This document shows, in pieces, positions 22,297-41,374 of a stretch of DNA of 64,000 bases. The DNA is taken from positions 1-64,000 of the IMG/VR virus record IMGVR_UViG_3300043436_001870; one strand, 5' to 3'. The position numbers and the translations under genes are program-made. Within the stretch, counting starts at the first letter, position 1. Each line of letters begins with the position of its first letter. The notes under the pieces are model-generated. The model saw nothing but the letters and a program-made list of their open reading frames with translations. It was not told where the DNA came from and made no database searches. The stretch is from a virus.

Positions 22297-23418
22297 ATGA
22301 ATAAAGATCAAATTCAACAGCATGCTCTGTCTGTTTTACTATCACTGTTCTCCTGTCCAGGCCGTCTACGTGTTGGCCTTGACATCAGCATGGGCGTAGG
22401 TAAAACATTATTAGCACTCAAGTTTCTTAATCAGACAGCCGTCAGTGCAAAGATCCTAGTTGTAGGACCCAAACTAACCGTTAAGAAGACATGGTTGGAT
22501 GAATGTGATACTCATGGTCTATCCCATATCAAGGATGACATGAGTTTTGTTGTTTACCGTTCTCTCAATAAGATTCCTGATATCAACTCTTACCAGTATA
22601 TTATACTAGATGAGTGTCACAATCTTTTAGAGAGTCACCGAGGTATTCTAACCAAGTTTAATGGTCATATCATAGGACTTACTGGTACACCACCAAGGTA
22701 TAAGCATACAGGTAAAGGAAAGATGGTCAATGACTTCTGTCCCATTACATATAACTATAAGACTGATGAGGCCGTTGATGACGGAATTCTGAATGATTAT
22801 GTTATTTATGTGCACCTGATTGACCTGAACACTGATAACACCTTCCACAAGAAGAATAAGAAGGGTGGTGGTTACTATACATCTGAGAAAAAGATGTACG
22901 AGTATTGGTGTAATGCCATTGATGATGCTCCAGATGGACATCAACATTTAGCCAGAATCATGAGGATGAAGTCCATGATGAGTTTTCCAAGCAAAGAAAA
23001 GTATGCTAGGGAGCTGATTGACTTCATTGATGACAAGGTATTACTGTTTGCCAATACAAAAGATCAGGCATCTAAACTTTGTAATAACACTTATTTCAGT
23101 GGTAATTCAGAGTCAGAAGTTAACCTTGAAAAGTTTAAAGCTGGGGTGATTACTAAACTTGCAGCTGTACTCCAGCTCAATGAGGGTATAAACATTCCTG
23201 ATTTAAAGCAAGGTATCATCATGCATGCATATGGTAATGAGAGGACTACTTCCCAGAGATTGGGCAGATTGCTTCGTTTAAAACCTAATGAAACAGGTAA
23301 GATTCACATCCTCTGCTACAAGAATACTGTAGATGTCCAGTGGGTTGAATCGGCACTAGCAAGTTTTGATCAGTCCAAGATTCAATGGGTAGAACGTAAA
23401 AAATCTATTACTAAATGA
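22297..23418 (+). CDS. SF2 DNA helicase, 373 aa
   Basis: Motif I SMGVGKT (31-37), motif II DECH (104-107), motif III LTGTPP (about 128-133) and motif VI TTSQRLGRLLRL near 325 are all present, giving a complete two-RecA-domain SF2 translocase of compact size. It probably remodels or unwinds DNA during replication or repair. Overlaps the ClpS gene by ATGA. Similar SF2 helicases are standard in crAss-like phages. Confidence 0.85.
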   Translation: MNKDQIQQHALSVLLSLFSCPGRLRVGLDISMGVGKTLLALKFLNQTAVSAKILVVGPKLTVKKTWLDECDTHGLSHIKDDMSFVVYRSLNKIPDINSYQYIILDECHNLLESHRGILTKFNGHIIGLTGTPPRYKHTGKGKMVNDFCPITYNYKTDEAVDDGILNDYVIYVHLIDLNTDNTFHKKNKKGGGYYTSEKKMYEYWCNAIDDAPDGHQHLARIMRMKSMMSFPSKEKYARELIDFIDDKVLLFANTKDQASKLCNNTYFSGNSESEVNLEKFKAGVITKLAAVLQLNEGINIPDLKQGIIMHAYGNERTTSQRLGRLLRLKPNETGKIHILCYKNTVDVQWVESALASFDQSKIQWVERKKSITK

Positions 23419-23687
23419 GTACTGAAACTCTAGAAGTTACTAAAACAGATGTAGACACGGAACAAGAGCCTAAGATTGTAGTATTTAATGATAATCACAA
23501 CAGTTTTGACCATGTGATTATGTGTCTTGTTACGTTTTGTAAACACAGTACAACCCAGGCAGAACAATGTGCCTGGATTATCCACACCAAAGGTAAGTAT
23601 GCTGTTAAGCATGGTTCTCTAGAAGAACTATTACCAATTAATGAAGCTCTTGGAGCAAATGATTTAACAACAGAAATTCAATTTTAA
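23415..23687 (+). CDS. clpS: ClpS-like protease adaptor
   Basis: 90 aa. The sequence VVFNDNHNSFDHVIMCLVTF, then QAEQCAWIIHTKGKYAVKHG, matches the ClpS core and especially the Bacteroidota form (FDHVI, QAEQCA, KHGS). The N-degron pocket ligands are kept: Asn25, Asp26 and His57. ClpS delivers N-end-rule substrates to ClpAP/ClpCP. The flexible N-terminus needed to engage the unfoldase is present (about 18 residues, acidic). It lies between the helicase and the ParB-like gene, with one-base overlap to the latter. No ClpP or Clp ATPase is seen, so it would use host machinery. Confidence 0.85.
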   Translation: MSTETLEVTKTDVDTEQEPKIVVFNDNHNSFDHVIMCLVTFCKHSTTQAEQCAWIIHTKGKYAVKHGSLEELLPINEALGANDLTTEIQF

Positions 23688-24418
23688 TGGAAGCAAAATT
23701 TCACAACTACACCCAAGTATCAGTAGAAAAAGTAAAAGAACTAAGTTTTAACAGAAACAAGAGTGAAAAGCATATTAAGACCTTATCAAGATCAATACAT
23801 AAGGTTGGTGTTTTGAGAACACCTGTGATTGCAAAAACCAAGGCTCTAAGTGGTACCACAGAATACTACATTATTGACGGTCAACATCTTATAGAGAGTC
23901 TGAAGAGACTTGAGGTAGAGAAGGTTTATGCAATTGTTGTAGAGACTGACTCTATTGCTGAGATTGTAGATATGATGGCCCTGTTGAATAATGTTCAGCA
24001 GAAGTGGACCCTCATGAACTATGTAGATGCATATATTGGCATGGGTGTTCAGGATTACTTTATCCTAAAGGAACACAGCAAGAAAAATGGCTTTAGTATC
24101 AATCTATCTGCAGGTATTTTAGGAGGCTGTAGACACTATGGTAGAGGTACAGATCCTGTAAAGAATGGTACTTTTAAAGTATCTGCTGCAGATTCAGATG
24201 AATTAACATCTAGACTTCAAGAAATCTGTGCTATTACTGGTGTTACCGGCAATAAGTTCCAGAGTGCTTATATTGAATTCTTCAGAGCAAACTATAAGGC
24301 TTACAACCATAGTAAGTTCATGAAGAGAATCAAAGATAACTTGAGCATGTTTGAAAACATGCCCCATGACATAAACTATTGTCATTCTCTACTGGTCAAG
24401 CTTTACAAAAGCAAATAA
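23687..24418 (+). CDS. ParB/Srx-fold nuclease-like protein, 243 aa
   Basis: The N-terminal domain has the ParB/sulfiredoxin pattern: R-N-x-S-E-K, the VLRTPVIA strand, then YYIIDGQHLIESLKRL (GQH in place of GER/GHR). The C-terminal 120 residues are helical without a clear HTH. Family members bind or nick DNA or hydrolyse CTP. Coupled to ClpS by one base. Exact role unclear. Confidence 0.75.
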   Translation: MEAKFHNYTQVSVEKVKELSFNRNKSEKHIKTLSRSIHKVGVLRTPVIAKTKALSGTTEYYIIDGQHLIESLKRLEVEKVYAIVVETDSIAEIVDMMALLNNVQQKWTLMNYVDAYIGMGVQDYFILKEHSKKNGFSINLSAGILGGCRHYGRGTDPVKNGTFKVSAADSDELTSRLQEICAITGVTGNKFQSAYIEFFRANYKAYNHSKFMKRIKDNLSMFENMPHDINYCHSLLVKLYKSK

Positions 24419-26102: not shown

Positions 26103-26993
26103 ATGAGCAAAGTTAGTTTTGTTCAGAGGAAATCTATGGAGATTAAGTCCTCTGGAAGATCAACTGATTTTATTGGACCAAGCTTTGGCTTTGGATGCTT
26201 ATTTGACTGCTCTTACTGCTATTGTAAGAGACATGTTAATGATGGTGTTAAGGTTGCCGAAAATGTAGATGACATTTTAGAAGCAATTATTGATCATGCA
26301 TATACCCATTTACATAATGGATGGGTGATAAAAAATAAACCTAATCAAACTGATAGTCATTTTATTACCTATGATATTGGTTGCAATGAAGATTTAGCAC
26401 TTCATGCTAAGTATTATGATATGCAGAAGATATTTAGAACTGCCGGAAGATCATCTTACATAAAGTTTTCATTTGCTACTAAGTATGTTAACTATGATTT
26501 GCCCAATCTATATATTGATTATGTTGGTAAGGTTAGAATCAGATTCAGTCTAATGCCTCAGAAGTATTCTGATATACTTGAACCTAATACTAGTCTTATC
26601 ATAGATAGAATCAAAGCAATTGATAAGTTTATAGAAAAAGGCTATGAGGTGCACATCAATTTCAGTCCTGTTATAGTGACTGATACTTGGCACCAAGACT
26701 ATTCAGATCTATTCCTTCTTGTAGACAAGTTTGTTTCTGATGAGAATAAGGATAAGGTCAAAGCTGAAGTTATCTTTCTTACTCATAATGAGAAGAAACA
26801 TGAATACAACTTGAAACATAACCTTCCTGGAGAGGACATGTTATGGAGACCTGAGTTACAGGAGGCCAAAAAATCCCAGTATGGAGGAGACAACATCCGT
26901 TACAACCACATCCTAAAAGCCCAGTATGTTCATGAGTTTAAGGCATTGCATAATCTTATAATTCCTTGGAATACAATTAGATATTGTTTTTAA
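26103..26993 (+). CDS. Radical SAM protein, photoproduct-lyase-like, 296 aa
   Basis: The Fe-S motif C-x3-C-x2-C is at Cys32, Cys36 and Cys39 (GCLFDCSYCYCKRH), the pattern of the SPL-type radical SAM family. A TIM-barrel-like body follows (FITYDIGCNEDLAL, IRFSLMPQKYSDIL, VHINFSPVIV). Spore photoproduct lyase repairs UV thymine dimers, and relatives modify other substrates. In a phage it could repair or modify DNA. Stands just before the tRNA-like region. Confidence 0.8.
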   Translation: MSKVSFVQRKSMEIKSSGRSTDFIGPSFGFGCLFDCSYCYCKRHVNDGVKVAENVDDILEAIIDHAYTHLHNGWVIKNKPNQTDSHFITYDIGCNEDLALHAKYYDMQKIFRTAGRSSYIKFSFATKYVNYDLPNLYIDYVGKVRIRFSLMPQKYSDILEPNTSLIIDRIKAIDKFIEKGYEVHINFSPVIVTDTWHQDYSDLFLLVDKFVSDENKDKVKAEVIFLTHNEKKHEYNLKHNLPGEDMLWRPELQEAKKSQYGGDNIRYNHILKAQYVHEFKALHNLIIPWNTIRYCF

Positions 26994-38558: not shown

Positions 38559-38989
38559 TGGAAGAAACATTAAAACTTACACCAGAAACATGTGATAATA
38601 TTTTGAAGATCATGGAAAGCAATGACCAATCTAATTTAGTTATTGCTACTGAGACAATTAGAAATATTAATGTTGTAGAAAATTTACCTTATTTGTTAAT
38701 CATGTACAAACAGTCATCAGTTACAAATCGTCAAACAGTTTTTCTTGATACAATTAAAGACAAGATTCAGAGTACTTGTAAGACAATAACCTTTACAGAC
38801 AAGGTAAAGGATCTTACATATAATAAGTTGTACTATGAATTGAAAGCTCATAAAGAAATTGATCCTGAGGCAATGAATTACTTCCTTGATAAGTTTTCTG
38901 ATAGTTTGTCAGAGGTTATGATTAGCTGGGGGTTCAGTTTTATGGAAGATTTCAAATTGAAACTTATACCAAGAAAGAATGGATTATAA
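38558..38989 (+). CDS. Hypothetical protein, 143 aa
   Basis: Helical protein, coupled to the previous gene by TAATG and overlapping the metallopeptidase gene by 11 nt. No motif recognised. Confidence 0.65.
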   Translation: MEETLKLTPETCDNILKIMESNDQSNLVIATETIRNINVVENLPYLLIMYKQSSVTNRQTVFLDTIKDKIQSTCKTITFTDKVKDLTYNKLYYELKAHKEIDPEAMNYFLDKFSDSLSEVMISWGFSFMEDFKLKLIPRKNGL

Positions 38990-40181
38990 TACATTATCCA
39001 AAGCCAGTAAAGAACTAATGTTGATGGAGCCCTTTTATGGGCTCTTTCTTATTAGTCTTAACAAGGAGTTTGATGAGAAGAGAATACCTACAGCAGGTGT
39101 GTCTAGAAATGGAATCAACTATCAATTGTTGATTAATCCTACATTCTGGACTGAACTACCAAATGAGCATAGAATAGGTCTTCTTAAACACGAGCTTCTT
39201 CATATTGCTTTATTTCACCTTGAGTATGATAACAAGGGGAAAGATAAGGAACTTGTAAATATTGCAATGGACCTTGAGATTAATCAGTACATTGAAAAGA
39301 AATATCTTCCTGAAGGAGGATGCACTATTGACAATGAGACATTTGCTCCAATGAATCTGCCTATAAAAGCTGGCTGGCATACCTATTATGATCTTCTCCT
39401 ACAAGAAGCACAGAATCAGGCACAGTCTCCTATGGGTCAGAAGATTCAGCAAATGGTAGATGCTATTGCTAAAGGTCTATCTCAAACAGAAGATGGAACT
39501 CCTGTACCAGATCACAGCACATGGGAAGAGTTTGAAGGACTCAGTGAAGCTGAGAAAAAGCTTATTAAGTCTCAGATTGAACATAACCTACAACAAGTTG
39601 CTGAGCAGATAGAAAAATCTAGAGGTACAATTCCAGGTGAGCTATCTGGTATTATCAAGAAATTAAAAGAGAAAGAACCACCCAAGTTTGATTGGAAAGG
39701 TTATCTGAGAAGATTTGCCGGTGGTTCTCAGATTGTATATACAAAGAAGCTGAGAAGGAAGGATAACAAGAGATTTGAGGATAACCCAGGTCTTAAGATT
39801 AAGCAACGTAGACATGTTCTTGTTGCTATTGATACTTCACAATCAGTAAGTGATAAAGAATTGATAGAGTTCTTTTCAGAGATTGATCATATTAATGCAA
39901 CTGGTAGTGAGATTACAGTTATACAATGTGATGTAGCAATTAAATCTATCAAGGCTTATAGGAAAGGAGATGAGGTTACAGTTCATGGCCGTGGAGGCAC
40001 AAGCTTTGACCCAGTCTTGGAGTATTATAATGAGAACTTAAGAAAATATTCTTGTCTTGTATACCTCACAGATGGTGAGTGTTATACAGATGTCAATGTA
40101 AGAGGTAGAATGCTTTGGGTTATATCAACCCGTGGGCAAATAAACAAATCATTAAAAGGACCACAAATCAAGTTAAATTAA
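38979..40181 (+). CDS. Metallopeptidase-VWA protein (DUF2201 type), 400 aa
   Basis: The N-terminal domain has HELLHIALFH (His71-His75, His80; HExxH type) for zinc. The C-terminal domain is a VWA fold: LVAIDTSQSVSDKE (D-x-S-x-S, MIDAS), GGTSFDPV and YLTDGEC. Such proteins pair with MoxR ATPases as metal-insertion or assembly chaperones, and the MoxR gene is next. Conserved in crAss-like phages; the target is unknown. Confidence 0.85.
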   Translation: MDYNTLSKASKELMLMEPFYGLFLISLNKEFDEKRIPTAGVSRNGINYQLLINPTFWTELPNEHRIGLLKHELLHIALFHLEYDNKGKDKELVNIAMDLEINQYIEKKYLPEGGCTIDNETFAPMNLPIKAGWHTYYDLLLQEAQNQAQSPMGQKIQQMVDAIAKGLSQTEDGTPVPDHSTWEEFEGLSEAEKKLIKSQIEHNLQQVAEQIEKSRGTIPGELSGIIKKLKEKEPPKFDWKGYLRRFAGGSQIVYTKKLRRKDNKRFEDNPGLKIKQRRHVLVAIDTSQSVSDKELIEFFSEIDHINATGSEITVIQCDVAIKSIKAYRKGDEVTVHGRGGTSFDPVLEYYNENLRKYSCLVYLTDGECYTDVNVRGRMLWVISTRGQINKSLKGPQIKLN

Positions 40182-40183
40182 TT

Positions 40184-41374
40184 ATGGCACAAGTAAATCT
40201 TAATACTGATGAACTTAAGAAGTTCATGAACCACATTGTAAGTAACAATCAGTATCTTCAAACTAATGGTAAGATTCCAGTAGCTGTTGCTGTTGAGGGT
40301 GAGGCTGGTATTGGTAAAACCAGTACAATTTTGCAGATTGGTAAAGAACTTGGACTTCAAGTAGTAAAGATTAATCTATCTCAGATTGAGGAGATTGGTG
40401 ACCTTACTGGTTTTCCACTTAAGGAATTTGAAGTAAAGAAACAAGGTGAAGACGGCAAGGTAGTTACCAAGTGGGTACCTGAGTCTTTGATGCCTATGTA
40501 TGTACAGAATAAATATATTCCTTCTGGAGAGAAGAGAATGTCTCATGCTGCTCCTGAATGGATTCAAGGTAGAGGAGAAGGTGGTCTTCTAATATTGGAT
40601 GACTATACTCGTGCTGACCAGAGATTCCTACAAGCTTGTATGGAATTGATTGACCGTCAGGAGTACATCTCTTGGAAGCTTCCAAAGAACTGGCACATCA
40701 TCCTTACTACTAATCCAGACAATGGTGATTACAATGTAAACTCTGTTGACATTGCACAGAAGACCAGATTCATTACTGCAAACTTGAAGTTTGATATTAA
40801 TTGCTGGGCCCAGTGGGCAGAGGAAAATGGTATTGACTCACGTTGTATCAACTTCCTATTGATGAATCCAGATGTTGTAAAGAAGGAAACTAATGCTCGT
40901 GCTATTACTACTTTCTTTAATAGTATTTCAAGCATTCCAAACTTTGAAACTACAGAATCCCTTGCTATGATTCAATTCATTGCTGAAGGTTCTGTTGGAC
41001 CAGAGATTGGTACCATGTTTACCTTGTTCATCAATAACAAGTTGGATAAATTGATGAGTCCAGACAAGGTTCTTCTTGGTGAAAAGTGGGAAGATGTTGA
41101 GAAAGAATTGTCAAGTATCATTGGTAGAGATGCTGCATACAGAGCAGACATTGCTAGTGTAATGGCAACACGTATTATCAATTACACAATTAATTATTCA
41201 AATACCCAAGATGTTACCCAGGCTATTACTGATCGTGTAACAAAGCTTGTAACCACTGAGGTATTCTCATTTGATCTTAAGTATCATATGTTAAAGTCTA
41301 TTCTTAATGGTAACAAGACAAAGTTTGCAAAGCTTATGATCAATACTGAGGTAGCAAAAATGGCTGTTAAATAA
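40184..41374 (+). CDS. MoxR-type AAA+ ATPase, 396 aa
   Basis: Starts at ATG 40184 two bases after the VWA gene. Walker A GEAGIGKTS (39-47), LLILDDYTRAD (Walker B) and an HIILTTNPDNGDYNV sensor-1 region give a MoxR/RavA-like AAA+ module. It likely works with the metallopeptidase-VWA protein as a chaperone that activates or remodels a phage or host complex. Confidence 0.85.
   Translation: MAQVNLNTDELKKFMNHIVSNNQYLQTNGKIPVAVAVEGEAGIGKTSTILQIGKELGLQVVKINLSQIEEIGDLTGFPLKEFEVKKQGEDGKVVTKWVPESLMPMYVQNKYIPSGEKRMSHAAPEWIQGRGEGGLLILDDYTRADQRFLQACMELIDRQEYISWKLPKNWHIILTTNPDNGDYNVNSVDIAQKTRFITANLKFDINCWAQWAEENGIDSRCINFLLMNPDVVKKETNARAITTFFNSISSIPNFETTESLAMIQFIAEGSVGPEIGTMFTLFINNKLDKLMSPDKVLLGEKWEDVEKELSSIIGRDAAYRADIASVMATRIINYTINYSNTQDVTQAITDRVTKLVTTEVFSFDLKYHMLKSILNGNKTKFAKLMINTEVAKMAVK

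What the first reader, a model, noticed from the sequence alone, without database searches (positions are those of the whole stretch)
23415..23687. Phage-encoded ClpS adaptor of Bacteroidota type
The 90-aa protein keeps the N-degron pocket residues (Asn25, Asp26, His57) and the Bacteroidota hallmarks FDHVI, QAEQCA and KHGS. No Clp protease or unfoldase is seen, so it could redirect or saturate host ClpAP/ClpCP N-end-rule proteolysis. It lies within the helicase/ParB-like operon, so timing with replication is plausible. I do not know of a described crAss-like ClpS.
Basis: partly seen in the sequence, partly recalled or inferred. Interest (0 to 1): 0.85.

Follow-up and report, generated by a model that had tools for sequence, protein, structure and literature searches.

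The report
Phage-carried ClpS protein-degradation adaptor
A deep-branching aquatic crAss-like phage carries a real, conserved ClpS gene, the small adaptor that hands proteins with certain N-terminal amino acids to the bacterial Clp protease, but no Clp protease of its own was found, so it probably steers the host's protein-degradation machine; ClpS genes in other phages were already known.

Summary
The 90-aa ORF at 23415-23687 (+) is a genuine ClpS: Pfam PF02617 at 4.6e-14, a confident predicted ClpS fold, and solved ClpS structures as its strong fold matches. The N-degron pocket residues match those of Bacteroidota ClpS. The genome is crAss-like by capsid profile and by the terminase of sister genomes, but is a deep lineage outside the named families sampled. 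The gene is not a stray: of 53 viral ClpS loci compared, 31 have it just downstream of the same helicase as here. Two sequence types occur there, both with the pocket intact, and close pairs show purifying selection (dN/dS about 0.06-0.19). Presence is patchy: 2 of 5 sampled capsid relatives that cover the helicase have it. No ClpP, Clp-type unfoldase or Aat was found in the record, so the likeliest function is a stand-alone N-recognin adaptor working on host ClpC/ClpA-ClpP. Phage ClpS was already described in jumbo phages, with the same proposed mechanism; I found no earlier crAss-like example. In vivo role, partner and substrates are untested.

The parts
23415..23687 (+). clpS: 90-aa ClpS adaptor; residues 1-14 low-confidence N-terminal extension, 20-90 folded core, pocket residues N25 D26 N29 F31 V34 A53 I56 H57 L84
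   Evidence: Pfam PF02617 4.6e-14; AlphaFold2 mean pLDDT 84, core above 90; Foldseek to solved ClpS 5.1e-07, TM (target) 0.87-0.91 for the best; residue table; dN/dS 0.07 and 0.16 to its two nearest relatives
22297..23418 (+). ResIII/SNF2-like DNA helicase directly upstream; the conserved syntenic neighbour of clpS
   Evidence: Pfam ResIII 2.5e-11, phrog_16 4.4e-31; helicase within 1.1 kb upstream of ClpS in 31 of 53 viral loci, within 250 bases in 26
23687..24418 (+). ParB-like protein, start overlaps the clpS stop; less conserved in the neighbourhood
   Evidence: Pfam ParB_N 3e-06, phrog_12305 1.1e-11; found in only 4 of the related loci, in three of them between helicase and clpS

Best explanation
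The gene encodes a functional ClpS derived from a Bacteroidota-type ClpS and kept by a deep-branching aquatic crAss-like lineage. It works as a stand-alone adaptor: the core binds the N-domain of the host's ClpC/ClpA-type unfoldase, its pocket captures proteins with bulky hydrophobic N-terminal residues, and its disordered N-terminal extension lets the host Clp protease take them. By raising the ClpS level in infection it would push host Clp towards N-degron substrates and away from others, as E. coli ClpS does. Shown: identity, predicted fold, intact pocket, N-terminal extension, conservation, synteny, no own Clp parts found in the record, presence of ClpS and Clp_N partners in host-type genomes. 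Inferred: binding to host Clp, direction of the effect, benefit to the phage, timing.
For: Family: Pfam 4.6e-14. Fold: ClpS in both phage sequence types. Pocket: positions equivalent to E. coli N34, D35, T38, M40, V43 and H66 have the residue usual in Bacteroidota in 78/78 host, 7/7 window-type and 17/17 divergent-type sequences; V65 and L99 keep similar residues. Selection: dN/dS 0.06-0.19 in ten close pairs. Synteny in 31 of 53 loci. No ClpP in the record or in ten other large ClpS-positive records, no Aat in any of them, no Clp-type unfoldase in the record. Host side: of 60 genomes of the class of a Crocinitomicaceae genome, 51 have ClpS and 58 have Clp_N domains. E. coli ClpS switches ClpAP specificity in this way (PMC9663308).
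Against: No binding or activity data. The host is unknown; Bacteroidota is inferred from ClpS type and crAss kinship. The extension is shorter than in hosts (24 residues before the ND motif against a median of 29, and 33 in E. coli) and has one junction Pro instead of the E. coli Pro-Pro, so delivery could be impaired. Positions recalled as E. coli ClpA contacts (E79, K84) are not conserved in Bacteroidota or phage, so the interface could not be tested by residues. Patchy presence shows the gene is dispensable in the lineage. Only 15 of 60 host-class genomes have Aat, so the source of N-degrons is unclear.
Confidence: 0.66

Rival explanations
1. Decoy or inhibitor: the phage ClpS docks on host ClpC/ClpA but delivers poorly because of its shorter extension, so it blocks the unfoldase's N-domain and protects phage or host proteins from degradation.
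For: Extension about 5 residues shorter than the host median and 9 shorter than E. coli; no Pro-Pro junction. Blocking the E. coli extension from the channel stops delivery (PMC9663308). Leptospira ClpS proteins strongly inhibit ClpA ATPase (PMC12493166).
Against: The N-degron pocket is fully kept under purifying selection, which a plain blocker would not need. Some host ClpS have extensions of 19-24 residues on the same measure, and divergent-type phage ClpS have about 31.
Confidence: 0.17
2. Sequestration: the protein binds N-degron proteins, of phage or host, without Clp, acting as a holder or as part of a replication-linked complex with the neighbouring helicase.
For: Fixed position next to the helicase in 31 loci; divergent-type sequences differ from host ClpS over the C-terminal half.
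Against: No example known to me; ClpS-fold core and N-terminal extension are both kept. Gene neighbours in phage genomes need not interact.
Confidence: 0.1
3. Neutral passenger: a recent host gene pick-up or mis-binned host DNA with no role.
For: Patchy distribution among capsid relatives.
Against: Same place in 31 loci, two phage-only clades with long stems, dN/dS 0.06-0.19, overlapping start and stop in the operon.
Confidence: 0.03

Closest known systems
Bacteroidota chromosomal ClpS (PF02617)
   Same: Up to 56-59% identity over the aligned stretch; same pocket residues, QAEQCA helix, short C-terminal region
   Different: Phage forms make separate clades on long stems; extension about 5 residues shorter in the window type; gene sits in a phage operon
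Jumbo-phage ClpS (Agrobacterium phage Atu_ph07, Klebsiella phage RaK2, AMM43882.1)
   Same: Phage-encoded ClpS, same proposed use of host ClpAP (PMC7824862, PMC6102473; fold matches)
   Different: Atu_ph07 and RaK2 proteins are 16% and 12% identical to the window protein in fold alignments; Atu_ph07 also encodes ClpX, ClpA, ClpB and ClpP-like proteins, none of which was found in the window's record
ClpS of 634-642 kb uncultured huge phages (LR756504, LR756502, LR745206)
   Same: Bacteroidota-type ClpS, 37-52% identity
   Different: Those phages carry two or three ClpP copies as well; the helicase is not next to ClpS
Crassvirales (Suoliviridae, Steigviridae)
   Same: Crass_capsid profile 1.3e-31; TerL of sister genomes groups on the Crassvirales side, 100/100 support
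   Different: No ClpS found in known Crassvirales records by tblastn with three queries; TerL only about 22-28% identical

Membership tests
ClpS (PF02617) adaptor family | Significant match to the ClpS profile | tested here: met
   4.6e-14, 52.4 bits over a cut-off of 23
[quoted passage not shown]
   AlphaFold2 core pLDDT above 90; all 38 matches below 1e-3 are ClpS chains except the malarial entry 4o2x; L7/L12 starts at 8e-3. The alignment used held host ClpS, so fold and homology are not independent
ClpS (PF02617) adaptor family | N-degron pocket: Asn34, Asp35, His66 and hydrophobic wall (E. coli numbers) | tested here: met
   N25, D26, H57; N29, F31, V34, A53, I56, L84 as in Bacteroidota
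ClpS (PF02617) adaptor family | Disordered N-terminal extension | tested here: met
   Residues 1-14 below pLDDT 50; shorter than the host median
ClpS (PF02617) adaptor family | Binding to ClpA/ClpC N-domain | not testable with these tools
   No complex prediction available; recalled E. coli contact residues vary within Bacteroidota
ClpS (PF02617) adaptor family | Delivery of N-degron substrates to Clp protease | not testable with these tools
   Needs biochemistry
Crassvirales / crAss-like phages | crAss-type major capsid protein | tested here: met
   PF23898 at 1.3e-31, 110 bits over a cut-off of 27
Crassvirales / crAss-like phages | crAss-type terminase large subunit | tested here: inconclusive
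   TerL was not found in the window's record, a fragment; TerL of sister genomes (capsid 90-97% identical) hits crAss-type records and groups with them 100/100, with long branches

The most novel reading that the evidence does not exclude
A lineage of crAss-like phages keeps two stand-alone ClpS types that retune the specificity of host ClpCP during infection: a proteolysis-hijacking system made of the adaptor only, possibly to remove host defence or regulatory proteins bearing N-degrons, or to shield phage proteins from other Clp degradation.
Probability: 0.35. Interest if true: 0.65.

Novelty: new member of a known kind. Interest (0 to 1): 0.45.

Why it matters
It extends phage-encoded ClpS from jumbo phages to a crAss-like lineage and gives a clean case in which only the adaptor is carried. 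If it changes host ClpCP specificity, the N-degron pathway of Bacteroidota, on which I found no study, becomes a direct phage target that can be tested with one small protein.

Tried and rejected
Host contamination or neutral passenger: rejected on synteny, selection and phage-only clades. L7/L12 C-terminal domain instead of ClpS (same fold): rejected, since solved ClpS match at 5e-07 and L7/L12 at 8e-03, and the pocket is kept. Own Clp system: searched for ClpP, Aat and Walker-A ATPases; nothing Clp-like found in the record. An undetected ClpS downstream of the helicase in ClpS-negative relatives: read, other genes are there. ClpS tree: 78 columns only, so the donor group could not be resolved. 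Papers on crAss-like ClpS: none held.

Full report
What was checked. Pfam names it ClpS, PF02617, at 4.6e-14 and 52.4 bits against a curated cut-off of 23. phmmer against solved structures gives a UBR1 chain at 3.8e-4 and weak hits to E. coli ClpS, so a profile was needed to see the family clearly. It is the only ClpS in the 113,164-base record.

The operon. The clpS start overlaps the stop of a ResIII/SNF2-like helicase (22297-23418), and its stop overlaps the start of a ParB-like gene (23687-24418), which fits translational coupling.

The phage. The capsid gene of the same record (genome 110643-112265) matches Pfam Crass_capsid at 1.3e-31. I did not find TerL in the record, which is a fragment. 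TerL of a sister genome with a 91% identical capsid hits 133 phage records; the rows listed are crAss-type or unnamed records, at 22-28% identity. In a TerL tree the window's clade falls on the Crassvirales side with 100/100 support, apart from Suoliviridae and Cellulophaga phage phi14:2, while csAssE-Sib, phi17:2 and Lbo-JY46 fall on the other side. Long branches are present, and three gut rows entered only as short fragments because my reading stopped at in-frame stop codons, so I call it a deep crAss-like lineage and go no further.

Relatives. An alignment search of IMG/VR found 51 loci that encode ClpS. Fifty of these and three from 634-642 kb huge phages were compared for gene order. In 31 of the 53 the same helicase lies less than 1.1 kb upstream of ClpS, and in 26 less than 250 bases. 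Within this lineage there are two main sequence types: the window type with QAEQCA, and a divergent one with KAAEIAMKVH at the same place. The remaining loci lack the helicase close by in the stretch fetched. They include the huge phages, which also encode two or three ClpP, and one 50-kb contig with ClpP and ClpS.

Presence and absence. Eighteen further contigs were picked by capsid similarity, not by ClpS. Two have ClpS, and a search with the divergent type added none. Only five of the eighteen cover the helicase: G022 and G024 have ClpS, while G021, G023 and G025 have other genes there; G023 ends about 1 kb after the helicase. So the gene is common but not fixed, and the sample is small.

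Selection and tree. Nei-Gojobori dN/dS is 0.07 and 0.16 between the window gene and its two nearest relatives, and 0.06-0.19 in ten close pairs. Some dS values are near saturation, so the ratios are rough, but none is near one. In a 136-row tree of only 78 columns the window type forms a supported clade of eight and the divergent type one of seventeen, both on long stems among Bacteroidota ClpS. The donor group is not resolved.

Pocket and fold. Mapped on E. coli ClpS, the phage residues are N25 (N34), D26 (D35), N29 (T38), F31 (M40), V34 (V43), A53 (M62), I56 (V65), H57 (H66) and L84 (L99). The first five, and H57, are the same in all 78 host, 7 window-type and 17 divergent-type sequences. 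The host rows were fetched with patterns that include VVFNDNHN-like and QAEQCA-like stretches, so their conservation there is partly a product of the search. The predicted structure has a core above pLDDT 90 and low confidence in residues 1-14. Solved ClpS chains match at 5e-07 to 2.6e-04; ribosomal L7/L12, which shares the fold, begins at 8e-03. The divergent type also folds as ClpS. Both alignments held host ClpS, so the fold supports the family call but is not independent of it.

Mechanism. E. coli ClpS docks on the ClpA N-domain, holds N-degrons in its pocket, threads its extension into the ClpA channel, and promotes N-degron substrates while inhibiting ssrA-tagged ones (PMC9663308; PMC12493166). 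The phage protein has the pocket, the core and an extension. No ClpP or Aat was found in this record or in ten other large ClpS-positive viral records. The Walker-A ATPases seen in the record are a DnaB-like helicase, a MoxR-like ATPase and a PIF1/AAA_30-type helicase domain in a 2801-aa protein, none Clp-like; the motif scan would miss an ATPase with a changed Walker-A, as it did the ResIII helicase. In 60 genomes of the class of a Crocinitomicaceae genome, 51 have ClpS, 58 have Clp_N domains, mostly four hits as expected for two double-repeat proteins such as ClpB and ClpC, and 15 have Aat. A stand-alone adaptor for host ClpC/ClpA is therefore the simplest reading. Whether it delivers or blocks is not settled: the extension is about five residues shorter than the host median and has a single junction proline.

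Known and new. ClpS in phages is known. It is annotated in Atu_ph07 together with other Clp proteins (PMC6102473), and a survey of jumbo phages proposes that it brings targets to host ClpAP (PMC7824862). The library of viral protein models also holds several phage ClpS entries. I found no paper on ClpS in crAss-like phages in the library held, and tblastn with three ClpS queries found none in the known Crassvirales records of the phage collection; that absence is at tblastn sensitivity. The finding is a new member of a known kind in a new phage lineage, of moderate interest.

Noticed in passing
window 26103-26993 (+): 296-aa radical-SAM protein matching spore photoproduct lyase (PF20903, 2.2e-21), with homologues in 18 related phage loci; a possible phage DNA-repair enzyme.
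   Followed up: partly
window 38979-40181 and 40184-41374 (+): DUF2201 metallopeptidase/VWA-like protein paired with a MoxR-like AAA ATPase (phrog_1314 and phrog_1297).
   Followed up: partly
LR756504.1, LR756502.1, LR745206.1 (L011-L013); contig of L034: 634-642 kb uncultured phages carry ClpS with two or three ClpP each; a 50-kb viral contig has ClpP and ClpS.
   Followed up: partly
BFVD entries A0A7M1RVY7, A0A7M1RW86, A0A7M1RYC8 and bL12-like entries: Gut crAss phages have small proteins with a fold like that of ClpS and the L7/L12 C-terminal domain; whether any is related to ClpS was not tested.
   Followed up: no
control genome Bacteroides ihuae: No ClpS or Aat hit although ClpP and Clp_N are found; gut Bacteroides may lack the pathway, which would fit the absence of ClpS in gut crAss phages.
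   Followed up: no
L010:2803-6543 (-), genome 99702-103442: 1246-aa protein in the structural region with Sortilin-Vps10/BNR-like and VWA matches.
   Followed up: no
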